Of a stretch of DNA of 34,230 bases, positions 14,655 to 26,341 are shown in pieces (position 1 is the first letter of the stretch; every line of letters begins with the position of its first letter). Origin of the DNA: an uncultured bacterium (GTDB lineage: Bacteria; Armatimonadota; JACIXR01); NCBI GenBank assembly GCA_938041455.1, contig CALITO010000049.1:1-34230 (forward strand), in the 5' to 3' direction. The notes below the pieces were generated by a model. The model was not told the origin of the DNA and ran no database searches. It saw nothing but the letters and a program-made list of their open reading frames with translations. Made by a program: the position numbers and the translations under genes.

Positions 14655-17447
14655 ATGGTGAACTTAGAGGAACCACCATTACGGTTCCTAAACACTCTCA
14701 GGGAGGAGTTGGGGAGGGGAGAGGTTAAGTTATCAATTTCTACCGACCTTCCCGAAGAAAAGGACACCAAAGAATGGCTTATATTGACGGAAAAGCACCT
14801 GGCGATTTTAAAGGAGGGGGGAGGTAAGGAGGAGTTAAAGAAGTTGATTGCCTTGGAGGATATAGAAGATGTTCGCTCCATTCCTCTCGTGGGCTGTGGT
14901 GTGTTAGAAGCGAAGGTAAAGGGGGAGTGGGTTAGGCTTATCCGCTACTCCAATGTGTTAGCTTCCCAATTCGCCCTTGCCTCAAGGGACATCTCCCTCC
15001 TTAAAGAAGGGAAGAAGGAGATGCCGGCGGAAGAGGAGAGGCAAAAGTGCCCCAAGTGTGGGCTACCCCTTCCCTATGGCTCCCGAGTTTGTCCTCGCTG
15101 TCTTCCTAAGGGACAGATTTTAAAGCGTCTCCTCACCTATGCAAAACCCTATAAGTGGCCCCTCGTAATTGCGGGACTCATCTCCCTTCTTATCACGGGA
15201 TTTGACCTCCTCCCCATCTACATCAACCGCTATCTAATGGACCATGTCTTCGTTCCCGCTGATTCCCATTATCACCATAACCTGTTTATGAACCCGGAAG
15301 AGATGAGATATCTTCCTATAGCGCTGATTACAATGGTTTTATGCTTGCTCCTTGTGAGAGTGATAAGCACAACCTTGACAATTTTTCGGGGTAGGATCAC
15401 AGTTAAGACCGGACAAAAGATAGTCTATGACCTTCGCTCCTCCCTTTTCAAGAACCTTCAGCATCTCTCGGTTACCTTCTACGACCGTTATCCCACCGGT
15501 TCTCTCATATCCCGTATAACCCAGGACACCAGCGCATTGCAGGGATTTCTCGCTAATGATATCTATTTCTTCGCCGTGAACATCCTGCTCCTCATCGGCA
15601 TAAGTGCCATTCTCTTACAAATGAACTGGCGCCTTGCTCTCTTCACACTCATCCCCGCTCCCCTAATACTCGCTCTCGTGGGCTTCGTTTGGGGCTACAT
15701 CTATATGAACTTCCGCAGGCTATGGCACAGATGGAGTAGATTCGTCTCCGTCCTCAGCGATTCCCTCTCCGGTATCAGGGTTGTCAAGGCCTTCGCTCAG
15801 GAGCATAAGGAGGAGGAGAGATTTGACAAGAGGGCCCACGCACTTTTCGAAGCTGCCACAAGGGCTGGACAAACCCAGGTGACCTTCTCACCTATCCTCT
15901 CCACCCTCATAAGTTCTACCTCCCTCATAGTTCTCTACTTCGGAGGGAGAGGTATAATTGGGGGGGAGATATCCACGGGAACCCTATTTGCTTTCCTGAG
16001 CGCTCTGGGTATGCTGTTTGGTCCCCTCCAGGTAGTTATGGAGATGAGCAACAGCATCGCTAACGCCCTCGCTGCCTCCGAGCGAGTTTTTGAGATTATG
16101 GATATGGAAACTGAGGAATTAAACGAAAGCGAGGGAAAGGTCTCACTTCCCTACATTTACGGCAATGTGGAATTCCGCAATGTGACCTTCGGCTATGATA
16201 AGCATCAACCCATTCTCCACAATATAAATTTGAAAGTAAGGGCAGGAGAGATGGTGGGCATAGTGGGGCCAAGCGGAGCGGGTAAAACCACTATAATAAA
16301 CCTCATCTGTAGGTTCTATTTGCCAACAGAGGGGGAGATATTGATAGACGGCGTCAACATCAAGGACATCAATCTGCGAGACCTCCGCAGTCAAATAGGA
16401 CTTGTCCCTCAGGAACCTTTCCTCTTCCGAGGCACGATAGCGGAGAACATAGCCTACTCTCGTGTCGATGTGCGGCCAGAGGATATAATAAGGTCTGCAA
16501 AGGCAGCTAACGCCCACCACTTCATCACTTACTTCCCCGAGGGTTACGATACAGTGGTAGGTGAGAGGGGGGCAGGGTTATCGGGAGGGGAAAGGCAGAG
16601 GATAGCAATTGCCCGAGCTTTACTACATAATCCTCGCATCCTTATCCTTGACGAGGCTACCTCAGCAGTTGATACGGAGGCAGAGAAGCAGATACAGGAG
16701 GCGCTGTCTCGTCTCATTAGAGGAAGGACCACTTTTGCCATAGCCCACCGCCTTTCCACCCTCCGCATCGCAGACCGAATAGTTGTCCTTAAAGGGGGAC
16801 GGATAGTGGAGCAGGGAACAAACGAGGAGTTGCTCTCTCGCAATGGCGAATACAAGAGATTAGTCGAACTGCAGGCGGGGCCAGTAAGTGGACCCGAGAA
16901 ATGGGCGGTGAAAAGGGAGGAGATTGAGGAGATGGATATAGGACCCCTCTTCTTTCCCCCCAACACCATCAAGTTTGAGAGAACATTGGGCGGAGTGGTT
17001 AAACTTTATGCCGAGGGTATAGGTGAATTCCCAAAGGTAATATTGAGGAGACTTTTCCCCCTCTCTGATCCCACCCGTTATATAAGCGTTTGGAATGGCG
17101 ATTATAGGAGTGAGGAACAGTTCGGACAGGAGATAGGAGTTATACCGGATTTGGATATGTTGGACCCCAACTCCAGACGGGTAGTGGATGAGGAACTTAG
17201 GCGAACATATTACATAGCGAAGGTGAAGAAAATAAGATCGGTTAAGGACCTCTACGGGTTCACCGAGTGGATAGTGGAGACAGATATAGGAGAACGGAAA
17301 TTCCTCACTTGGGGCTTACACAATAGCGTAATAGATATGGGGGAACGTCGGTTGATAATCTGGGACATAGACAATATCTATTACGAGATAGAGGATTGGT
17401 CACTCTTAGACCCCAAAAGCCTATCCTATATAAAGCGGATATTGTAA
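14655..17447 (+). CDS. ABC exporter with PH-like, zinc-ribbon and DUF1854 domains
   Basis: A 930-residue single-chain half transporter. Residues about 25-120 are beta-rich with a final helix and look like a bacterial PH-like domain (inference). Residues 132-149 are a zinc ribbon (Cys132, Cys135, Cys146, Cys149). Residues about 160-450 are a six-helix type I exporter membrane domain. The ATPase has Walker A GPSGAGKTT (538-546), LSGGERQR from residue 642, Walker B with Asp666/Glu667 and His698. Residues about 770-930 match DUF1854 (FERTLGGVVKLYAEG; WNGDYRSEEQFGQEIG), a domain known beside ABC genes linked to cyanophycin metabolism. Usual exporters are about 580-620 residues, so roughly 150 residues are added at each end. 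Near-consensus promoter and GGAGGTG ribosome site. The cargo is unknown. Confidence 0.92.
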   Translation: MVNLEEPPLRFLNTLREELGRGEVKLSISTDLPEEKDTKEWLILTEKHLAILKEGGGKEELKKLIALEDIEDVRSIPLVGCGVLEAKVKGEWVRLIRYSNVLASQFALASRDISLLKEGKKEMPAEEERQKCPKCGLPLPYGSRVCPRCLPKGQILKRLLTYAKPYKWPLVIAGLISLLITGFDLLPIYINRYLMDHVFVPADSHYHHNLFMNPEEMRYLPIALITMVLCLLLVRVISTTLTIFRGRITVKTGQKIVYDLRSSLFKNLQHLSVTFYDRYPTGSLISRITQDTSALQGFLANDIYFFAVNILLLIGISAILLQMNWRLALFTLIPAPLILALVGFVWGYIYMNFRRLWHRWSRFVSVLSDSLSGIRVVKAFAQEHKEEERFDKRAHALFEAATRAGQTQVTFSPILSTLISSTSLIVLYFGGRGIIGGEISTGTLFAFLSALGMLFGPLQVVMEMSNSIANALAASERVFEIMDMETEELNESEGKVSLPYIYGNVEFRNVTFGYDKHQPILHNINLKVRAGEMVGIVGPSGAGKTTIINLICRFYLPTEGEILIDGVNIKDINLRDLRSQIGLVPQEPFLFRGTIAENIAYSRVDVRPEDIIRSAKAANAHHFITYFPEGYDTVVGERGAGLSGGERQRIAIARALLHNPRILILDEATSAVDTEAEKQIQEALSRLIRGRTTFAIAHRLSTLRIADRIVVLKGGRIVEQGTNEELLSRNGEYKRLVELQAGPVSGPEKWAVKREEIEEMDIGPLFFPPNTIKFERTLGGVVKLYAEGIGEFPKVILRRLFPLSDPTRYISVWNGDYRSEEQFGQEIGVIPDLDMLDPNSRRVVDEELRRTYYIAKVKKIRSVKDLYGFTEWIVETDIGERKFLTWGLHNSVIDMGERRLIIWDIDNIYYEIEDWSLLDPKSLSYIKRIL

Positions 17448-17477
17448 ACCCCATCTTTAATCCCGTAGCCGAAGTAT

Positions 17478-17506
17478 TTGACATAAAGTAACAAAACATT
17501 TAAATT
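17478..17506 (+). promoter_or_regulatory. ftsK: promoter of the ftsK-gltX operon
   Basis: Perfect -35 TTGACA (17478-17483), 17 bases, TAAATT (17501-17506, four of six). RNA would start near 17513, about six bases before the ATG at 17519. The other bases of this 71-base gap show no terminator for the ABC gene. Confidence 0.52.
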
Positions 17507-17518
17507 ATTGTTTTGGAG

Positions 17519-19705
17519 ATGCCCAACAGGAAAGGCAAGAAGAGACCCACTAAAGTCAAAGCGAAAATAAGGGAAAAGGAACCAAGGGAGATAACGCTGA
17601 GCCCTCTTACCTACGACGCCATCGGGATATTCCTTATCGCCCTTGGGTTAACCGTTCTCCTCGCCCTCTTCTTCAAAGAAGGGGGGTTATTGGCGGAGGC
17701 TTGTAGATATATCTCCCTTCTCTTAGGCGAAGGCTCCCTATTACTTCCCCTCGCCTTCTTCCTCCTTGGGATATCCACGCTCGTAAGGTTAGAGAAACAT
17801 AAGACCAAGAATGTATCCCTTGGTCTTTTCCTTTTCATCCTCGCCATCCTCGCCTTTCTCCACCTTCCTTTCTTCCGGTCCCTCAACTTATATGAGATTT
17901 GGCAACCTGCGGGTGAGGGAAAGGGAGGGGGATACATAGGTGCTGCCTTTTCCTTCCTCCTTTATAAAGCGGTGGGTTACTACGCTTCCTTCGTCCTCCT
18001 CTCCGCATTGGTTCTTATAAGCCTACTAATCATAGTAGGTTCCCCCATAAGGGAAATCACCCAGCAGTTGAGGAAGAAGCGAGAGGAACGCCCTCCAATC
18101 GAACCGACCCCGCCCTCGAAATTCCCCCCACTTACCCCTAAAGAGGAACCTAAAGGGACGCTGGAAAGGAAGTTCAGCCTCTCTTCCTTCTTCCGTCGCA
18201 GAGAGAAGAAGGAAGAGAAAGAGGATAAGGAAAAGAGGAAAGCCCTTGAGACAGAGAGCAAACCTCCCTCTAAGGCACCTTGGCAACTGCCCCCCTTTGA
18301 CCTCTTGAACAAGCCGCGTGATATTTCCGAGAGGCGTTTGGAGAGCGAGGCGAAAGAACATATAGCTATAATTACCCGCACATTAGCGGACTTCAATGTG
18401 CAGGCGGAGGTTGTTGAGGTATCTCGGGGTCCCACCGTAACTCGCTACGAGGTTCGCCTCGCCCCAGGCATAAAAGTCCACAAGATAGTCAGCTTGGCAG
18501 ATAATTTAGCTATGGAGCTCGCCGCTCAATCGGTAAGGGTTGAGGCACCCATACCGAGCAAGTCCGCCATAGGGATAGAGGTGCCGAACAAGGTGGCGAG
18601 CACTGTCTACCTTCGCCAACTCATCGAAAACGAAGAGTTCTGGAAGAACCACAACAAGCTCATCTTCCCCCTCGGATTAGATGTAGCAGGGAAACCGGTA
18701 TATGCTGACCTATCAGTTATGCCCCACCTCCTCATCGGTGGAGCGACAGGTTCGGGGAAAAGCGTTTTTCTCTCCTCCCTCATCGCATCCTTCCTTTATA
18801 AATTCTCCCCTGAAGAGTTGAGAATGATAATAGTTGACCCCAAGAGGGTAGAACTGACCCTGTTCGATGATATCCCCCACTTAGTTGAGCCGGTGGTTAA
18901 GGAGATCACGGATGTTATCATCGTTTTCCAAAAGGCGCTCAGGGAAATGGAGAGGCGATATGACCTCTTTGCTGAAGGGGGGGTGAGAAATATCTTCGGC
19001 TATAACCAGCGCTTCCCTGATGGCAAACTTCCTTATCTAATAATAGTGGTGGATGAGTTAGCGGATATTATGCTGACGAGGCAGAAGGCACAGGTGGAGG
19101 CGATGATTTGCCGGCTGGCGCAACTGGCAAGGGCAACGGGAATCCATCTCGTTATCGCCACTCAGCGCCCATCTGTGGATATAATAACCGGTCTCATAAA
19201 GGCTAACTTCCCCTCCCGCATAGCCTTCGCAGTTTCTACCCAAGTGGATTCCAGGGTTATTTTGGATACGGGAGGGGCGGAGCTCCTCATCGGTAGCGGT
19301 GATATGCTCTTTGCCCCCTTAGATTTTCCCAAGCCGATACGCATCCAGGCTCCTTATGTAAGCGAGAAGGAAATGGAAAGGCTTGCCGACTTCTGGCGGA
19401 AGCAGGGTGGCCCCACCCCCCTTGAGGAATGGGGTAAGCCCATAGTCCTCGGTGAACTCCTGCCCGAGGAGGCAAGCGATGATGAACTCTTCGAACAGGC
19501 AGTAAGGCTCGTCTCAACTCTCAGGCAAGCCTCTACTTCTCTTCTCCAGAGAAAGATGAAAATAGGTTATAACAGAGCTGCACGACTTATGGAGATGATG
19601 GAGGAAAGAGGCATAGTAGGACCCCAAGAGGGGGTCAAGCCAAGGGAGGTGTTAGTCACCCCCGAGGAAGTAGAGGAAATGTTTTCGGTAGGGGACAAGG
19701 AGTAA
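17519..19705 (+). CDS. ftsK: FtsK/SpoIIIE-type DNA translocase
   Basis: ATP-driven pump that moves chromosomal DNA through the division septum. After a basic N terminus come four membrane helices (about residues 30-185), a short, highly charged linker (about 190-265), the alpha/beta motor with Walker A GATGSGKS (408-415) and Walker B VVDELAD (Asp512, Glu513), and a C-terminal gamma winged helix (ASTSLLQRKMKIGYNRAARLMEMM, given here only as the region about 656-680) that reads polar DNA motifs. At 728 residues it resembles SpoIIIE more than E. coli FtsK. An in-frame TTG at 17513 is an alternative start. No spaced ribosome site precedes either. First gene of a six-gene run; rimO begins at the next base after the stop. 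Confidence 0.95.
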   Translation: MPNRKGKKRPTKVKAKIREKEPREITLSPLTYDAIGIFLIALGLTVLLALFFKEGGLLAEACRYISLLLGEGSLLLPLAFFLLGISTLVRLEKHKTKNVSLGLFLFILAILAFLHLPFFRSLNLYEIWQPAGEGKGGGYIGAAFSFLLYKAVGYYASFVLLSALVLISLLIIVGSPIREITQQLRKKREERPPIEPTPPSKFPPLTPKEEPKGTLERKFSLSSFFRRREKKEEKEDKEKRKALETESKPPSKAPWQLPPFDLLNKPRDISERRLESEAKEHIAIITRTLADFNVQAEVVEVSRGPTVTRYEVRLAPGIKVHKIVSLADNLAMELAAQSVRVEAPIPSKSAIGIEVPNKVASTVYLRQLIENEEFWKNHNKLIFPLGLDVAGKPVYADLSVMPHLLIGGATGSGKSVFLSSLIASFLYKFSPEELRMIIVDPKRVELTLFDDIPHLVEPVVKEITDVIIVFQKALREMERRYDLFAEGGVRNIFGYNQRFPDGKLPYLIIVVDELADIMLTRQKAQVEAMICRLAQLARATGIHLVIATQRPSVDIITGLIKANFPSRIAFAVSTQVDSRVILDTGGAELLIGSGDMLFAPLDFPKPIRIQAPYVSEKEMERLADFWRKQGGPTPLEEWGKPIVLGELLPEEASDDELFEQAVRLVSTLRQASTSLLQRKMKIGYNRAARLMEMMEERGIVGPQEGVKPREVLVTPEEVEEMFSVGDKE

Positions 19706-20989
19706 GTGAAGGTAGCTTTTATCAGCTTGGGCTGCCCTAAAAATAGGGTAGATACGGAAAGCTTGCTGTCATTGCTTTTGGAGCGAGGTTTTCATCTCTC
19801 ATCGGAGAAAGAAGCTGAGGCAGTGGTTATAAATACCTGCGCCTTCATAAAGCCAGCCGTTGAAGAATCTCTGAGGGAGATGAGGAGGGTAAAAAGAAGG
19901 GGGCAAATCCTTGCTGTCGTGGGTTGTTTACCCCAGAGGTGGAGGAGAAATCCCTCCTCTGTAGAGGCGGATGTTGTGCTTGGCTTGGGCAAAGGATGGA
20001 AGTTGCCAGAAGCGCTCCTCCGAGCAAAAAAGGGAGAGAGAAGTGTGGAAATCGGCGAGCCGGAACCCCTAAATACACCACCCCGTTATATACTCACCAC
20101 CTATCCCTACGCTTACCTGAAGATAGCCGATGGTTGCGATAATAGATGCAACTATTGCACCATCCCCCTCATCCGGGGCAGTTTTCACAGTAGGAAAGAA
20201 GAGGATATCCTAAAGGAGGCCCAAGAGTTAGCCCGCAGAGGGATAAAGGAACTGATTTTAGTCGCCCAGGAGACCACGAGATATGGATTTGATATAAATA
20301 GGGAGTTGACGCTTCCCAAGCTCCTTGTTAAACTATTGAATATTGAGGTCAAATGGATACGCATTATGTATATGCATCCCGCAAGGATCACTCCTTCCCT
20401 GTTGGAAACGATGGCTACCTCCGATAAAATAGTGAAATATTTTGACATCCCCTTCCAACATGTTTCTACCCGCATATTGAGGCTTATGGGAAGGGAGGGC
20501 TCAGGTAAGGAGTATTTGGCTCTTATAGAGAAAATACGCAAAGCCATCCCCAACGCCTGCTTTCGTTCCAGCTTCATTGTGGGGTTTCCCACGGAAAGCG
20601 AGGAGGATTTCCAGTATCTCCTCTCCTTCTTGGAGGAAGCGAAGCTCGACAAGGTGGGTTTTTTCCCCTTCTATGCCGAGAGCGAGGCACCCGCTTCTCG
20701 CTTACCATCTTTGGCAAAATCCCTTATAAAGGAGCGACTCGGGCAAGCGAGGGAACTTCAAAAGAGAATAGGGGAAGAGAGAAACAAGGAGCAGATTGGC
20801 AAGGAGTTGGAGGTTTTGTTGGAAGGCTTTCAGGGTGATAGGATAAGGGGACGCTCTTATAGAGAAGCACCCGAGGTCGATGGAGCGGTGTTTGTGAAAG
20901 GGAATACTTGCCGAGCAGGGGAGTTCGTGAGGGTGAAAATCCACGGCGCCGATAGTTATAACCTGTTTGCAGAGGAGGTTAAAGGATGA
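19706..20989 (+). CDS. rimO: ribosomal protein S12 methylthiotransferase RimO
   Basis: Radical SAM enzyme that methylthiolates the conserved Asp of ribosomal protein S12. The N-terminal UPF0004 domain binds one Fe-S cluster (Cys10 in SLGCPKN, Cys45 in NTCAF, Cys74 in VGCLPQR). The radical SAM motif is CDNRCNYC (Cys144, Cys148, Cys151). A C-terminal TRAM domain covers about residues 365-427. SLGCPKNRVDTE separates RimO from MiaB. The GTG start follows the ftsK stop directly, with AAGGAG only three bases before it, and agrees with the usual RimO N terminus. Its stop overlaps the next start as ATGA. Confidence 0.95.
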   Translation: MKVAFISLGCPKNRVDTESLLSLLLERGFHLSSEKEAEAVVINTCAFIKPAVEESLREMRRVKRRGQILAVVGCLPQRWRRNPSSVEADVVLGLGKGWKLPEALLRAKKGERSVEIGEPEPLNTPPRYILTTYPYAYLKIADGCDNRCNYCTIPLIRGSFHSRKEEDILKEAQELARRGIKELILVAQETTRYGFDINRELTLPKLLVKLLNIEVKWIRIMYMHPARITPSLLETMATSDKIVKYFDIPFQHVSTRILRLMGREGSGKEYLALIEKIRKAIPNACFRSSFIVGFPTESEEDFQYLLSFLEEAKLDKVGFFPFYAESEAPASRLPSLAKSLIKERLGQARELQKRIGEERNKEQIGKELEVLLEGFQGDRIRGRSYREAPEVDGAVFVKGNTCRAGEFVRVKIHGADSYNLFAEEVKG

Positions 20990-21249
20990 AACTCAAGATA
21001 TTTTGGCAAGAGGATTGTCCCCACTGCCCCCCAGCTAAGAAACTGGGAAAGGAACTGGAAAAAGAAGGAGTGGAAGTGCGATATTATAATGTCAAAACCC
21101 TTGAGGGACTTACAGAGGCTTCCTTTTACAGCGTCTTATCTACACCAGGGATAATAATAGTGGATGACGACGAGGAAGAGATCGCCGGTTGGAGGGGCAC
21201 TACCCCCACAAAGGAGGAAATATACCGCTACCTGAACGAAAGTGAATAA
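20986..21249 (+). CDS. small thioredoxin/glutaredoxin-like protein
   Basis: An 87-residue thioredoxin-fold protein with a CPHC redox pair (Cys11, Cys14) right after the first strand and a cis-Pro STPGIIIV loop near residue 52. It is short, like glutaredoxin or NrdH-type redoxins. It overlaps rimO by four bases (ATGA) and the NrdG-like gene by eight bases, so the three are translationally coupled. The position beside an RNR-activase-like gene suggests that it supplies reducing power to ribonucleotide reduction or to the iron-sulphur enzymes next door (inference). Confidence 0.85.
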   Translation: MKLKIFWQEDCPHCPPAKKLGKELEKEGVEVRYYNVKTLEGLTEASFYSVLSTPGIIIVDDDEEEIAGWRGTTPTKEEIYRYLNESE

Positions 21250-21961
21250 ACCAAACGGGATAAAAGGGTTCATTGAGGTTTCCCTTCTTGACTGGGATGG
21301 ATTTATCTCCTCGGTGCTCTTCCTCCCTAACTGCAACTTCCGCTGTCCATTCTGCCAAAACTGGCAATTAGTAGATGAGCCGGAGAAGATAGAAGATGTT
21401 GATTGGACGATTATAGAGAACTATCTTAGAGCAAAAACAGAATGGATAGATGGAGTAGTCATAACGGGAGGGGAACCGACAATCTATCCCCAGTTAAGGC
21501 TTCTACTTGAAGAAATTAAAAAACTTGGCTACAAAATCAAGCTTGACACTAACGGTTATAATCCCTCGTTATTGAGAGAGCTTCGGGAGGAGGGACTCCT
21601 GGATTATATAGCGATGGATATCAAGGCACCCTTTGATGGAAGATATAAACTGGCGAGCGGGGTTGAGGAATTAGAGATAGAGAGATTGAAGGAAAGCATC
21701 AAACTTCTCATCCAGGGGAAAGTTGACTACGAGTTCCGCACCACCCTTGTTCCATCCCTCATAACCGCGGGGGAGATAAAGGAGATTGGGAAGGCGATAA
21801 GGGGAGCGAAGAGATGGGTGCTTCAGGAGTATCAACCCAAATCGGCAAGAAACGAGGCTTATCGTCAGTTGAAGCCCTATAAAAAAGAGGAAGTGGAATA
21901 CTTTGTTTCTTTGGGAAAGGAATATATAGAAGAGGTCTACTATAGAGGAAAATGGAGGTGA
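21242..21961 (+). CDS. NrdG-like radical SAM activating protein (anaerobic RNR activase family)
   Basis: Radical SAM protein of 239 residues with CNFRCPFC (Cys31, Cys35, Cys38), a GGEPT motif near residue 79 and LDTNGYNP near 102. The start GFIEVSLLDWDG resembles the TIGR02495 group annotated as anaerobic ribonucleoside-triphosphate reductase activating protein. In class III RNR systems this enzyme makes the glycyl radical on NrdD, but no NrdD gene lies in the window, and members of this group may serve other glycyl-radical enzymes. GTG start, eight-base overlap with the thioredoxin-like gene; the next gene follows after four bases. Confidence 0.82.
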   Translation: MNKPNGIKGFIEVSLLDWDGFISSVLFLPNCNFRCPFCQNWQLVDEPEKIEDVDWTIIENYLRAKTEWIDGVVITGGEPTIYPQLRLLLEEIKKLGYKIKLDTNGYNPSLLRELREEGLLDYIAMDIKAPFDGRYKLASGVEELEIERLKESIKLLIQGKVDYEFRTTLVPSLITAGEIKEIGKAIRGAKRWVLQEYQPKSARNEAYRQLKPYKKEEVEYFVSLGKEYIEEVYYRGKWR

Positions 21962-21965
21962 AACT

Positions 21966-23750
21966 TTGGATAAGACAGTTTCCCATTTATTGGAGGAGAC
22001 AATTCCAACTCGTTTATTTTACGAGTTGACGAGGGCTATCCTTTTGGAAAAGGGAGGAGCTCTGCCCCCTAAGGAGATAGCCCTTCTACTCGAGAGGGAG
22101 GGCTTCCGTCTCCCTCGCCGCCTCGTGAAATATCTCCTCTCCCTTTGGGAGGAGGGCATCCTAAAGAAGGAGGGAACTGTTAACCTTACCTATAGAGAAG
22201 AGCATACCGCACGCCCTCTCGAGGGGGAGGTAGATAAGATTTTGCGGAGCGTTGGGAAACCCCTCTCTCTGGAAAAACTATCCCAAGAACTGGCAATCGT
22301 CCAGAGACGCCTCCCCCAGATATATCTTCAATCACTTCCCCCGCTACTTTCTTCCCGCCCTAAGAAGTATTTTATCATAGGGGACAAAGTGGGGCTGAGG
22401 GATTGGTTGCTCCAAGTGGAGGAAGGAGCGAGCGAGGAAGAAGTAGTCTTCCTCAACTTCCTGCCCGAGGAGATACCCTCTTTGGAAAGTTGGTTACCCT
22501 TCTCCTCCTTTCTTAAAGGCGAGAACATCCTTGAGGAGACAAAGGCTCTCCTAAGGGAAAAGCCCGCCATCCCCCACAAGGTCCTCGCTTTCCTCGTCTG
22601 GAGGGCAAAAGGCACCGTGGATTCCCTTGAACTAATGGAGAAGATGCTGGAAGAGGGTAGTTTCTTTATGATGAAGCCGGCAAGCTGGCTCAATAGAGAA
22701 CAAATAACCTCCCTCTTACAAAACCTCCGGACAATAGAAATACCACCTGGGGCAGTGGAGCCGGAGCCCTTCGTTTTCGGTGAGGAAGAAAAGGAGATTT
22801 TACTATCTTATCTCAGGGAAAAAGGGAGAATAGCAGTAAAAAGGGCTGCAGAGGAGCTTTTCGAGCTCGAGGATGTAGATATAGAACAAGTGAAAACCAC
22901 GCTATCGGATTTTCTCAAAGAAAGGGGATTCCTTTGGTTAGGGGATGATAGATGGACTGAAGCGGAAAAACTCCCAATGGATATACTTGCTCTCCCTTCA
23001 GAAGTGGAAATAGACCGGAAATTCCAATACGAGGATTTGGACGGCGAACAACTGGAAGTGGAGTTAAGCGACGAGGGCTTGGAGAATGCCCTTCCCAAGT
23101 TACTAAAGGACCCCTTCGTTCAGGATACCGGTGACGAGGAGGATATAGAGATTGCTAAACCGAACGAGGAAATCCAACTCGTCATCCCCTACCATCATTA
23201 CATCTCGGGCACCCTTCCCGTGCGTAAATGGGAGAAAGCATTCTATCCCTCTGAGCCACATCTCCAACTGCTCACCTTCCTAACGGATAAAGGGGAAGAA
23301 TTGGAACTCTGGTTTAACAGAGACCTCCCCCTTATCTTTGGACTGAGGGATTGGTATGAGAAAAATCTCCCCCCATCTGGTGCCTTATTGAAGATAAGGA
23401 AAGAGCAGGAAATATATAAGATAATCTGGGAAGGAAAAACCCATCCCCTGCTCACCATTCCACCAAAGAGATTGAACGACCTCCTTAAACTCCGTGAGGA
23501 ACTCAAGGAACAACCCACTGTTGAGATCGTTCAAACTCTTCTGGAATATCACAAGAAAGCACATTTCTTCACGATTTTGAGCGAGGTGAATGTAATAAGG
23601 AGGACTCCGAAGAGGCGTGTAGCCTCCATCTTGAGTATCTTTCCTTGCTTCTATATGAGGGGTAAGGAAGAAGGGATCTTTTATTATGATTCTGCGAAGA
23701 GGGACGAGGTTATGAAACGAGCGAAGAAGAAGTATCTTATCACCAACTGA
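21966..23750 (+). CDS. unrecognised protein with winged-helix-like repeats and a beta-rich C terminus
   Basis: A 594-residue protein I cannot name. Residues about 8-75 and 78-130 read as winged-helix units (for example ELTRAILLEKGG, PKEIALLLEREG), and a third HTH-like unit lies near 280-330, so DNA or RNA binding is plausible. A very acidic stretch sits near 335-400. Residues about 405-590 are beta-rich (LELWFNRDLPLIFGLRDWY, GALLKIRK) and could be a small barrel domain. No catalytic motif is seen. The TTG start is supported by GGAGGTG with about eight bases of spacing. It sits four bases after the NrdG-like gene and three before gltX, so it is expressed with ftsK, rimO and gltX. Hypothetical. 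Confidence 0.85.
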   Translation: MDKTVSHLLEETIPTRLFYELTRAILLEKGGALPPKEIALLLEREGFRLPRRLVKYLLSLWEEGILKKEGTVNLTYREEHTARPLEGEVDKILRSVGKPLSLEKLSQELAIVQRRLPQIYLQSLPPLLSSRPKKYFIIGDKVGLRDWLLQVEEGASEEEVVFLNFLPEEIPSLESWLPFSSFLKGENILEETKALLREKPAIPHKVLAFLVWRAKGTVDSLELMEKMLEEGSFFMMKPASWLNREQITSLLQNLRTIEIPPGAVEPEPFVFGEEEKEILLSYLREKGRIAVKRAAEELFELEDVDIEQVKTTLSDFLKERGFLWLGDDRWTEAEKLPMDILALPSEVEIDRKFQYEDLDGEQLEVELSDEGLENALPKLLKDPFVQDTGDEEDIEIAKPNEEIQLVIPYHHYISGTLPVRKWEKAFYPSEPHLQLLTFLTDKGEELELWFNRDLPLIFGLRDWYEKNLPPSGALLKIRKEQEIYKIIWEGKTHPLLTIPPKRLNDLLKLREELKEQPTVEIVQTLLEYHKKAHFFTILSEVNVIRRTPKRRVASILSIFPCFYMRGKEEGIFYYDSAKRDEVMKRAKKKYLITN

Positions 23751-23753
23751 GAT

Positions 23754-25178
23754 ATGGTAAGAGTTCGCTTCGCTCCCAGTCCTACTGGTCATCTTCATAT
23801 GGGGAGCGCCCGCACGGCGCTCTTCAACTGGCTCTATGCTCGGAAGATGGGGGGAGTCTTCATCCTGCGCATAGAGGATACAGATTTGAGGCGAAATGTA
23901 GACGAAGCTTTCGGCGCCATCTTGGAAGCTATGAGGTGGCTGGGGCTTGATTGGCAAGAAGGTCCTTACTATCAATCGCAGAGGCTTCATCTCTATCGAG
24001 AGGTGGTAAAGCGCCTCCTTGAGGAGGGGTGGGCTTATCCCTGCTATTGCCTTCCCCAAGAGTTGGAAGAGAGAAGGAGGGAAGCCCTGAAGAGGGGAGA
24101 AAAACCTATGTATGATAGACATTGTAGGGACCTATCCCCAAAGGAGCGGGAGAAGTGGGAGAAAGAGGGAAGGAAGCCGGCAATAAGGTTCAAAGTCCCC
24201 CTCGAAGGGAAGACCTCTTTCCGGGATATAATCCGAGGGAGAATAGAGTTTCTCCATCAAGAGATAGAGGATTTCGTGATAATGCGCAAAGATGGCATCC
24301 CTACCTACAATCTCGCCTGTGTTGTTGACGACCACTATATGGAAATCACCCATATCATCAGGGGGGAAGACCATATCTCCAATACCCCCAAGCAAATCCT
24401 CATTTATAACGCATTGGGCTATCCCATTCCCCAATTCGCCCACCTCCCTATGATACTCGGTCCGGATAAATCGCGCCTTTCCAAAAGGCATGGTGCTACC
24501 TCCGTTAACGCCTATAGGGATATGGGCTTTTTGCCCGAGGCGGTGCTCAATTTCCTCGCCCTCCTCGGCTGGTCGCCGGGAGGAAACAGGGAGATAATCT
24601 CAAGGGAGGAGATGATAGAGGAGTTCGAGTTGGAAGGGGTGAAGAGACATCCCGCCGTATTCAATATGGACAAACTGATATGGCTCAATTCCCATTATAT
24701 GAAGACTTCCCCCCCTTCCCGCCTTGCCCACTTGGCGCTCCCCTTCCTCAAAAGAGAGGGATTAATAAAAGAGGGCGATTACCCAATCGAGATTTTGGAA
24801 AGGATTATGCCCCTCGTTCAGGAGCGAGCGAAGACATTGGAAGAGATGCCGAGATGGACAGATTTCTTCTTCAAACAAGAGATAGAATACGAGCAATCGG
24901 CGGTGGAGGAGTGGCTTCGGGACGAACTTCATCGGAAACTTCTTCTCTTGGCGAAAGAGGTTTTGGCGGTGCTTGAGCCCTTCACAAAGGAGAACATAGA
25001 GGTCGCTTTACGGGGGCTTGCTGAGAGAGAAGGGGTAAAGGCTAAGGAAGTATTTCATCCTTTAAGGGTAGCTGTGACGGGGAGAACGGTCAGCCCACCC
25101 CTCCTTGAATCCCTCGCCATCCTGGGCAAGGAGAAGACCCTTCAAAGGATAACCCAAGCCCTGAAATATGTGGGCTAA
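23754..25178 (+). CDS. gltX: glutamate--tRNA ligase
   Basis: Class I aminoacyl-tRNA synthetase that charges tRNA-Glu. The HIGH-type motif PSPTGHLHMGSA lies at residues 8-19, and the KMSKS-type motif SRLSKRHG at 240-247. The Cys pair near residue 99 (CYC) and the later Cys in RHCRDL recall the zinc-binding insert of bacterial GluRS. The C-terminal helical anticodon-binding region runs from about 320 to 474. Length is normal. Only three bases separate it from the upstream stop. Its TAA overlaps the TAG of the convergent glycosyltransferase gene. Confidence 0.97.
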   Translation: MVRVRFAPSPTGHLHMGSARTALFNWLYARKMGGVFILRIEDTDLRRNVDEAFGAILEAMRWLGLDWQEGPYYQSQRLHLYREVVKRLLEEGWAYPCYCLPQELEERRREALKRGEKPMYDRHCRDLSPKEREKWEKEGRKPAIRFKVPLEGKTSFRDIIRGRIEFLHQEIEDFVIMRKDGIPTYNLACVVDDHYMEITHIIRGEDHISNTPKQILIYNALGYPIPQFAHLPMILGPDKSRLSKRHGATSVNAYRDMGFLPEAVLNFLALLGWSPGGNREIISREEMIEEFELEGVKRHPAVFNMDKLIWLNSHYMKTSPPSRLAHLALPFLKREGLIKEGDYPIEILERIMPLVQERAKTLEEMPRWTDFFFKQEIEYEQSAVEEWLRDELHRKLLLLAKEVLAVLEPFTKENIEVALRGLAEREGVKAKEVFHPLRVAVTGRTVSPPLLESLAILGKEKTLQRITQALKYVG

Positions 25179-26341
25179 CCCGTTGTGTAGCCGTGGGGAG
25201 TCTTTGTCTCCCCCCAACTCTTGATGGTGAAACCTCGTAGGAAAGCAATCAGCCAGTGAAAGGAGAAGAGGAAGAAGAGGGGCAAATAGAGAACATCCTT
25301 CCACCTACCCTGACTAATTGCTCGGTAAAGGAAGAAAAGATACATCGCTACAAGGGAGAAGAGCCAGAGATGGACAGGGGGAAACCAATATGTGATATTT
25401 ATTCCCAAGCTCTTTAGGGGGAAGTAGATGACGGTGAGGAAGGCGCAAAGATACCAAGGAAAATAGAAAAGAGGGGATAACATATAAATAATGTCAAACA
25501 GGGGGAAGGGTTGCCATTTCCGTTTATTTATTATTCGCAGATGTCCCCTTATCCATCTCGCCCTCTGCCTTATTAGGGCTGACCAGTAAGGGGGCTTCTC
25601 ATCCAAGCACTCTACATCCGGGGCATATATCACCTTTATCCCTTTTTGAATCAGCTTGCAGTAAAGGTCAAAATCCTCTATTAATTCGTTTTCCCAAGCG
25701 TTTACCTCCTCCAAAATCCTCTTTCTTATGATTACCCCCGTTCCACCAATGGTGCAGGAAAGCCCTAAAGCACCTCTCCCCTCCCAAAAGGGCATACCGA
25801 AAAGGTCATATTCTATTTGCTGGCATTTGGTGAGAAGATTGAAATCGGCGTTCTTTGTGCCCAATCTAACCTGGAGAGCCTGAACCCGGGGGTGAGAAAA
25901 ATAGGATAGCACCTTCTTTAAAAAATCCTTTCCCACCCTGTTATCGGCGTCCATCTGGACGATTATATCCCCCGAGGAGTGCTGGAGAGCATAATTAAGG
26001 GCTAAAGCTTTTCCCGACTGAGGCGTCCTCAGCTCCACCACCTTGAGACGCTTATCAGTGAGAGAACGAGCTACCTCAAATGTCCTATCCTCACAATTAT
26101 GGCAAACCACTATTATCTCCAAATTAGGATAAGTCTGCTGGAGGAAATCATTGATTATCTCATTAATGACCTTTTCCTCGTTGTGAGCAGGTATGATGAT
26201 GGAGAAAAGCGGTGGGTCCACCAGTTTTCCCTCTTCCTCCCTTTTTCTGTAGGCAAGGCTGGAGAGTAGGACGAATAGCCAGGCAAAGGAGATTAAGAGC
26301 ATAAATATAGTGGCGGGAATGGTTAGGAAAGAGAGATCCAT
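25175..26341 (-). CDS. membrane family 2 glycosyltransferase (processive type)
   Basis: Transfers sugars from a nucleotide donor, probably building a polysaccharide at the membrane. After an N-terminal helix comes a GT-A domain: IIIPAHNEE (about residue 42), DAD (Asp131, Asp133) for metal and donor, ED (Glu222, Asp223) as acceptor-side base, and QRARW (259-263), the signature of cellulose, hyaluronan and NodC-type synthases. Three or more membrane helices follow to residue 388. The gene overlaps the stop of the upstream small membrane gene as TTGA; either that TTG (26350) or the ATG at 26341 starts it. Neither has a clear ribosome site, so coupling is likely. The product polymer cannot be read. 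Confidence 0.9.
   Translation of the reverse strand: MDLSFLTIPATIFMLLISFAWLFVLLSSLAYRKREEEGKLVDPPLFSIIIPAHNEEKVINEIINDFLQQTYPNLEIIVVCHNCEDRTFEVARSLTDKRLKVVELRTPQSGKALALNYALQHSSGDIIVQMDADNRVGKDFLKKVLSYFSHPRVQALQVRLGTKNADFNLLTKCQQIEYDLFGMPFWEGRGALGLSCTIGGTGVIIRKRILEEVNAWENELIEDFDLYCKLIQKGIKVIYAPDVECLDEKPPYWSALIRQRARWIRGHLRIINKRKWQPFPLFDIIYMLSPLFYFPWYLCAFLTVIYFPLKSLGINITYWFPPVHLWLFSLVAMYLFFLYRAISQGRWKDVLYLPLFFLFSFHWLIAFLRGFTIKSWGETKTPHGYTTG

What the first reader, a model, noticed from the sequence alone, without database searches (positions are those of the whole stretch)
21966..23750. Unrecognised winged-helix/barrel protein locked into the ftsK-rimO-gltX operon
The 594-residue protein has three or so winged-helix-like units, an acidic middle and a beta-rich end, and sits four and three bases from its neighbours. 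A large unknown nucleic-acid-binding candidate co-expressed with chromosome segregation, ribosome modification and tRNA charging deserves a family definition. It could be a transcription or repair factor tied to growth.
Basis: partly seen in the sequence, partly recalled or inferred. Interest (0 to 1): 0.55.

Follow-up and report, generated by a model that had tools for sequence, protein, structure and literature searches.

The report
Phylum-wide winged-helix protein with B3-like fold
Nearly all Armatimonadota genomes examined carry an undescribed protein that looks like a row of winged-helix units related to an RNA polymerase accessory subunit plus one domain shaped like the DNA-binding B3 domain of plant gene regulators; it is probably a gene-expression factor, but that remains to be tested.

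Summary
The 594-residue protein is real, conserved and unnamed: 235 of 255 Armatimonadota genomes have it, and no Pfam family matches it. The AlphaFold2 model (pLDDT 89.5) shows four winged helices, an acidic linker, a seven-strand/two-helix barrel and a fifth, basic winged helix. The barrel has the B3 fold: Z 11.0, 2.0 A over 93 residues to plant VAL1; the same half of a distant relative, folded alone, gave the same answer. Sequence methods see no B3. The winged helices have a weak RNA polymerase delta (HARE) signal, always below cut-off. rimO lies directly upstream in 32 of 60 regions, gltX downstream in 24 of 60; in 5 of 11 inspected genomes without the gene rimO lies within about 260 nt of gltX. 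Best reading: a transcription factor touching RNA polymerase or DNA. Fold and conservation are shown, function is inferred. The B3 unit, wH3 and wH4 are acidic on average, against simple DNA binding there. Occurrence outside the phylum could not be tested properly.

The parts
21954..21958 (+). GGAGG, probable ribosome-binding site (start codon TTG 21966)
   Evidence: sequence; TTG with GGAGGTGAAA upstream also in the two same-genus orthologues L002, L003
21966..23750 (+). the gene: 594-aa multi-winged-helix / B3-fold protein
22002..22196 (+). winged helix 1 (residues 13-77)
   Evidence: model topology; hhalign to wH2 92%; Z 8.0, 1.1 A over 58 residues to a Z-alpha domain (5j6x)
22206..22415 (+). 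winged helix 2 (residues 81-150), the unit closest in fold to the RNA polymerase delta domain
   Evidence: 2m4k Z 8.6, 2.4 A, 73 residues; 2krc Z 8.2, 2.0 A, 68 residues; alignment to 6zca; W147 in 67 of 70
22428..22751 (+). winged helix 3 with helical lead-in (residues 155-262), acidic
   Evidence: secondary structure; hhalign 73-77% to wH2 and wH4; charge; not tested by a fold search of its own
22767..22973 (+). winged helix 4 (residues 268-336), acidic
   Evidence: secondary structure; hhalign 93-95% to wH2; sub-threshold TIGR04567 hits on this unit in L023, L025, L111 (placed with the coordinates)
22974..23159 (+). conserved acidic linker (residues 337-398)
   Evidence: median net charge -13 over 70 orthologues
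23160..23450 (+). B3-type pseudobarrel (residues 399-495): seven strands, two helices
23451..23747 (+). winged helix 5 (residues 496-594), basic, most conserved unit, ends in a K/R-rich tail
17513..19705 (+). ftsK (DNA translocase)
19706..20989 (+). rimO (439 bits, cut-off 357)
20986..21249 (+). thioredoxin/glutaredoxin-like small gene (below family cut-offs)
21242..21961 (+). NrdG2-type anaerobic ribonucleotide reductase activase (191 bits, cut-off 131)
23754..25178 (+). gltX (593 bits, cut-off 290)

Best explanation
It is a conserved gene-expression factor of Armatimonadota. Shown (by prediction and comparison): a chain of four winged helices, an acidic linker, a B3-type pseudobarrel and a fifth, basic winged helix; by NCBIfam and PDB profiles the nearest named family of the winged helices is the RNA polymerase delta subunit, below its cut-off. 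Inferred: the delta-like units dock on RNA polymerase (as delta's N-terminal domain does between beta' shelf and jaw) or on another partner, while the basic fifth winged helix, perhaps with two loops of the B3 fold, holds nucleic acid; the acidic linker may modulate this as delta's acidic tail is thought to. The protein would tie RNA polymerase to certain DNA sites or states. Position between rimO and gltX fits a growth-linked housekeeping role.
For: Delta is the top PDB family of the whole-protein profile (6zfb E 5.7e-4, 2krc 1.7e-3, 6zca 5.1e-3). NCBIfam TIGR04567 (RNAP delta) is matched by 16 of 41 members, more than any other family, best E 5e-8; of the 20 members whose hit position I looked at 9 match, on wH3 (L029), wH4 (L023, L025, L111), wH5 (L004, L067, L073, L126) and one not placed (L118). 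Of 12 sub-threshold delta matches in 255 whole genomes 7 lie inside this gene. wH2 aligns with delta at Z 8.2-8.9. B3 fold from two proteins. wH5: R545, R546 and A553 in 69 of 70, S554, L556 and F562 in 70 of 70, median net charge +7. Delta's docking site and acidic tail: PMC7749165, passages seen.
Against: No direct evidence of RNA polymerase or DNA contact. All delta scores are below cut-off (best 33 of 42 bits), the window protein itself has none, and in the PDB profile search no single stretch is significant on its own (best 0.022). In Pfam HARE-HTH is only one of several weak families: DUF4777 matches more members (6 against 5 of 30) and Dimerisation has a better E (1.4e-4 against 7.6e-4). 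Delta's Z is only slightly above unrelated winged helices in the same list (7-8). For wH5 alone delta reaches only E 0.066, with an antibody chain among the best three, and wH5 is weakly linked to the other units (under 1 to 47%). The B3 unit has no sequence match to a B3 and a median net charge of -5; wH3 and wH4 are -7 and -6; the arm residue at 455 is R in 34 of 70 and P in the window. The neighbours are translation genes rather than transcription genes, and 20 of 255 genomes show no match.
Confidence: 0.45

Rival explanations
1. A translation or RNA-binding factor: tandem winged helices hold structured RNA, as the C-terminal winged helices of SelB do, and the gene works with rimO and gltX.
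For: Neighbours rimO and gltX; SelB C-terminal fragments and RNA-bound Egalitarian winged helices appear in the fold lists (1lva, 2uwm, 2ply, 9rw rows; 2pjp and 9rv/9rw rows); wH1 aligns with a Z-alpha domain.
Against: These are ordinary winged-helix matches (Z 7-8.1) that lie below B3 and delta; no GTPase or other translation domain found; 23 of 60 regions have neither neighbour.
Confidence: 0.2
2. Mainly a protein-protein scaffold in which the winged helices and the B3 fold no longer bind nucleic acid.
For: wH3, wH4, linker and B3 are acidic on average and the N-terminal units are the least conserved (mean pairwise identity 0.22-0.27 on every third row); the tandem winged-helix scaffold UFL1/DDRGK1 heads the Foldseek list.
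Against: wH5 is basic with near-invariant arginines, and H411, G415, T416 and N451 in the loops of the barrel are kept in 57 to 68 of 70.
Confidence: 0.2
3. A chromosome organisation or segregation factor acting with FtsK, for instance marking DNA sites for it.
For: ftsK lies upstream in the window and within 2.5 kb upstream in 9 of 60 regions.
Against: 51 of 60 regions show no ftsK there (some regions are cut by contig ends).
Confidence: 0.1
4. A restriction or modification reader, since B3 and HARE-HTH domains are known from restriction systems in bacteria.
For: B3 domains of BfiI, NgoAVII, UbaLAI and EcoRII, and LlaJI.R1, are among the fold matches; HARE-HTH has been proposed as a sensor of modified bases (PMC11037411, passage).
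Against: No nuclease or methylase family found in the protein; only weak defence-library hits in one or two of 30 members (best E 0.0053); near-universal in the phylum, unlike EcoRII-N, 2 of 255.
Confidence: 0.05

Closest known systems
RNA polymerase delta subunit (RpoE of Bacillota, TIGR04567; HARE-HTH, PF05066)
   Same: Winged-helix units with a delta-like profile and fold; an acidic stretch in the same protein.
   Different: Five units plus a B3 fold in 594 aa instead of one unit and a disordered acidic tail; all scores below cut-off; no genome of 255 in the phylum has a delta match over cut-off.
Plant B3 transcription factors (VAL1, FUS3, TEM1, ARF1, NGA1)
   Same: The whole B3 fold, seven strands and two helices; Z 8.6-11.0 in two models.
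   Different: No sequence match, 8-15% identity in the structural alignments, net negative charge, bacterial, flanked by winged helices.
Bacterial restriction-enzyme B3 domains (LlaJI.R1 - B3 by my recollection -, BfiI, NgoAVII, UbaLAI, EcoRII)
   Same: Same fold; LlaJI.R1 Z 9.1-9.3, others 6.3-7.9.
   Different: No nuclease part; a conserved gene of a phylum rather than a scattered defence gene. These chains are longer (about 160 residues), which may lower their Z.
SelB C-terminal winged-helix array
   Same: Row of winged helices in one chain.
   Different: No GTPase part found; only generic fold similarity.

Membership tests
RNA polymerase delta (TIGR04567) | score over NCBI's curated cut-off of 42 bits | tested here: not met
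   best member 33 bits; 0 of 255 genomes over cut-off, controls B. subtilis and L. lactis over it
RNA polymerase delta (TIGR04567) | one folded N-terminal domain plus disordered acidic tail | tested here: not met
   several folded units and a barrel, mean pLDDT 89.5 over 594 residues
RNA polymerase delta (TIGR04567) | binds RNA polymerase at the beta' shelf/jaw | not testable with these tools
   -
HARE-HTH domain (PF05066) | sequence match to the family | tested here: inconclusive
   none in the window protein; 5 of 30 members at E <= 1, best 7.6e-4, bits not shown; 0 of 1 over cut-off in the window's genome
HARE-HTH domain (PF05066) | winged helix with an extra helix in the HTH (definition from PMC11037411, passage) | tested here: inconclusive
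   winged-helix topology and delta match seen with three main helices in wH2; the extra helix was not compared residue by residue
B3 domain | seven-stranded open barrel with two helices | tested here: met
   strands 402-407, 416-418, 433-439, 445-451, 456-458, 473-480, 483-492, helices 421-426, 461-467; Z 11.0; repeated on L047
B3 domain | sequence match to a B3 family in Pfam or PDB | tested here: not met
   no B3 family among the 17 listed for 70 members at E <= 1 nor among 4 PDB hits of the profile
B3 domain | DNA-contacting N-arm and C-arm | tested here: inconclusive
   loops 408-415 and 451-455, placed by strand order, hold H411 67/70, G415 68/70, N451 57/70, R455 34/70; domain net charge median -5; contacts not modelled
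B3-type restriction endonuclease (EcoRII, BfiI) | nuclease domain in the same protein | tested here: not met
   no Pfam nuclease in the protein at E <= 10 or among the 15 families listed for 30 orthologues at E <= 1
SelB-type factor | EF-Tu-like GTPase part | tested here: not met
   no Pfam match in the protein and none of this kind in 30 orthologues

The most novel reading that the evidence does not exclude
A phylum of bacteria has its own general transcription factor: a delta-array that sits on RNA polymerase and reads DNA with a plant-type B3 domain. That would be a bacterial, non-restriction, housekeeping B3 regulator, and a possible window on where the plant B3 domain came from.
Probability: 0.22. 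Interest if true: 0.86.

Novelty: new variant of a known kind. Interest (0 to 1): 0.6.

Why it matters
Both building blocks are known; the combination matched nothing in the libraries searched here. If it binds RNA polymerase it is a basal transcription factor of one phylum and shows delta-type domains used as an array. If its barrel binds DNA it is a bacterial B3 outside restriction enzymes, which bears on the origin of a major plant regulator family. The gene is a good target: usually one copy per genome, with natural losses for comparison.

Tried and rejected
Pfam on the single protein gave nothing; the NCBIfam hit to an aminoglycoside acetyltransferase (E 0.07, 13 of 300 bits) I take as chance. 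Pfam hits of members such as DUF4777 (6 of 30, best 0.0046), Dimerisation (2 of 30, best 1.4e-4) and HTH_12 (1 of 30) are weak; part of them are winged-helix families. Hits of the B3 and wH5 pieces are scattered. Antibody chains and Toll in the PDB profile searches were judged chance. A cluster found near 17 loci, window copy included in its make-up (cluster 1), was dropped: the window copy is a pilin-like protein. No RNA family reaches its gathering score in 17000-25600. Promoter- and terminator-like sites are 11 against 6.6 expected (sd 2.8) and 8 against 11.3, so transcription as one unit is inferred from spacing only. Viral fold library: none at E <= 0.001. EcoRII-N: 2 of 255 genomes, the window's not among them; I did not compare EcoRII-N with the barrel by hhalign. 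Neighbours in lineages without rimO or gltX were listed only in part and not identified. No search outside the phylum was possible with the genome search; the genome-contig scan confirmed 37 of 42 stretches, in records named for Armatimonadota taxa (Candidatus Hebobacteria being one by my recollection) or unclassified, but its single motif reaches only a part even of the Armatimonadota. wH3 and wH4 were not folded and searched alone.

Full report
What is there. The ORF at 21966-23750 on the + strand codes for 594 residues, starts at TTG with GGAGG upstream, lies 4 bases after an nrdG2-type gene and 3 bases before gltX. The gene row is ftsK (17513-19705), rimO (19706-20989), a thioredoxin-like gene (20986-21249), nrdG2 (21242-21961), this gene, gltX (23754-25178); neighbours overlap or are at most 4 bases apart. 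No Pfam family matches the protein at E <= 10.

Conservation. In a first set of 61 relatives, the own genome included, 57 have it. In a search of 255 genomes of the phylum at least 80% complete, 235 have a match; of the 194 that are at least 90% complete and at most 5% contaminated, 184. By my reading of that table ten of the 235 show two matches and the rest one; some of the doubles are probably one gene in two pieces. Named records are Armatimonadota taxa (among them Chthonomonas, Fimbriimonas, Capsulimonas, Abditibacterium) or unclassified bacteria. Same-genus proteins are 67-68% identical to the window's, the other 27 in the alignment 23-30%.

Absence. With a broader profile 19 of the 20 negative genomes stay negative at E <= 10; G236 gives a weak hit (E 0.11) to the first winged helix. 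I looked for gltX in 30 chosen genomes, 13 of them negative ones; 11 of those 13 gave a gltX locus, all inspected. rimO was found upstream of gltX in 7 of the 11. From the end of the rimO frame to the first base of the gltX match it is about 16 nt (G249), 39 (G223), 51 (G251), 105 (G258) and 261 (G253); about 980 in G252; and about 540 in G236, where an 85-aa frame resembling the first winged helix lies between. The other four (G198, G227, G248, G255) showed no rimO in the stretch held. So where the order is kept the gene is a module between rimO and gltX. In a gltX tree of 24 genomes (4 of 28 with a match were left out, their gltX being split or cut) the 10 negative ones need three changes; nine of them sit in one well-supported group that also holds a positive genome (single gene, midpoint root for drawing only). 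I read this as loss from an ancestral state, with the G236 fragment as support; the two f19 negatives may be assembly gaps.

Linkage. I took 60 regions from positive genomes, chosen for spread and contig length. rimO is directly upstream on the same strand within 300 nt in 32 of 60, gltX directly downstream in 24 of 60, both in 19, either in 37, ftsK within 2.5 kb upstream in 9. Contig ends limit a few regions. The one region of the window's genus does not count for rimO, because other genes lie between. The 23 with neither include every sampled region of families f13, f32 and f33.

Fold. AlphaFold2 on the window protein with 37 orthologues gave mean pLDDT 89.5 and pTM 0.60: the domains are confident, their mutual arrangement is not. 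From the secondary structure I read winged-helix units at about 13-77, 81-150, 155-262 and 268-336, an acidic linker, a barrel at 400-494 and a fifth winged helix at about 500-575 with a K/R-rich tail. Profile comparison relates wH1-wH4 to each other (73-95%, except wH1-wH3 at 4-10%) and wH5 weakly (under 1 to 47%); pairs with linker or barrel stay under 6%. Only wH1, wH2, B3 and wH5 are covered by the listed fold matches; wH3 and wH4 rest on topology and profiles.

B3. Foldseek gives no match at E <= 0.001; UFL1/DDRGK1 chains head its list, and plant B3 domains appear with probability 0.97-1.00. VIA-align puts 19 B3 entries first (some by my knowledge of the protein rather than by title): VAL1 Z 11.0, 2.0 A, 93 residues, then TEM1, FUS3, ARF1, LEC2, NGA1 and others, with LlaJI.R1 at 9.3. 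As a second test I folded the C-terminal 198 residues of L047 alone (34% identical to the window there): pLDDT 92.8, pTM 0.85. The alignment shares its homologues with the first, so the test is not fully independent. The first 19 Foldseek rows are plant B3 chains, best E 2.1e-3; the first 20 VIA rows are B3 (Z 8.6-10.7), then forkhead winged helices at 7.5. In that list LlaJI.R1 has Z 9.1 and BfiI, NgoAVII, UbaLAI and EcoRII 6.3-7.2. Sequence methods see no B3, so common descent is not shown.

Delta. The whole-protein profile against PDB sequences has RNA polymerase delta as its three best hits (E 5.7e-4 to 5.1e-3), though no single stretch is significant alone. The wH5 profile has five delta chains among its best six hits, none below E 0.066, with an antibody chain third. 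NCBIfam TIGR04567 is matched by 16 of 41 members at E <= 0.1, best 5e-8. I looked up positions for 20 of the 41: 9 match, on wH3, wH4 or wH5, one not placed. All are below the 42-bit cut-off, and the window protein has no such hit. In Pfam, HARE-HTH (5 of 30 members) is one of several weak families. In 255 genomes no TIGR04567 match passes the cut-off; of 12 weaker ones 7 lie in this gene, 2 elsewhere, 3 could not be placed. wH2 aligns with delta structures at Z 8.2-8.9 (2m4k 8.6, 2.4 A, 73 residues; the 8.9 row, 9a6y, has rmsd 6.9), other winged helices in the list reaching 7-8.1. In B. subtilis the N-terminal domain of delta lies between beta' shelf and jaw and the tail is acidic (PMC7749165, passages only).

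Residues and charge. Over 70 orthologues the median net charge is 0 for wH1, -1 wH2, -7 wH3, -6 wH4, -13 linker, -5 B3, +7 wH5; mean pairwise identity, on every third row, is highest for wH5 (0.41), then B3 (0.32). In plant B3 domains an N-arm and a C-arm contact DNA (PMC8398556, passage); the matching loops here, placed by strand order and not by residue alignment, keep H411 (67/70), G415 (68/70), N451 (57/70) and less so R455 (34/70).

What is in print. Searches for HARE-HTH (51 papers, 30 listed), HARE-HTH with delta (1 paper), HARE-HTH or winged helix (20 of 3,552 listed), B3 with EcoRII, BfiI or pseudobarrel (15 of 33 listed in the last), Armatimonadetes signature proteins and Armatimonad-, winged-helix, B3 and HARE terms (12 of 631 listed) showed no description of such a protein. 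They cover open-licence PMC papers only and were read as titles and starts of abstracts. PMC6599366, PMC4081073 and PMC4267653 (passages) describe B3 in plant factors and in restriction enzymes. That non-restriction bacterial B3 proteins are otherwise unknown is my recollection, not a result.

Conclusion. Anatomy and conservation are solid, about 0.9. That it is a transcription factor touching RNA polymerase or DNA is the most likely mechanism, about 0.45, against RNA/translation, scaffold and segregation roles.

Noticed in passing
window 20986-21961: A thioredoxin-like gene and an nrdG2 activase sit between rimO and this gene; relatives of the nrdG2 protein were seen in 1 of 37 loci (L031, same genus) and in the same-genus region L068. 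The thioredoxin-like gene was not traced elsewhere.
   Followed up: partly
window 14655-17447: 930-aa ABC transporter with a C-terminal DUF1854, nearest to a cyanophycin-associated ABC transporter family but below its cut-off (591 of 880 bits).
   Followed up: no
L149 (G236), 1162-1419 on the gltX strand: An 85-aa frame resembling only the first winged helix lies between rimO and gltX, a likely remnant of the gene.
   Followed up: partly
G031:C295:386-586 (no locus fetched): A 115-aa open frame outside this gene scores 28 bits (E 7.6e-6) to RNA polymerase delta, perhaps a stand-alone delta-like protein.
   Followed up: no
L031-L067, gene starts: 32 of 37 orthologue starts, chosen by best ribosome-binding site, are GTG or TTG and 5 ATG; the choice rule may bias this.
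   Followed up: no
L130, L131, L132: EcoRII-N type genes occur in 2 of 255 genomes of the phylum, G094 and G216.
   Followed up: no
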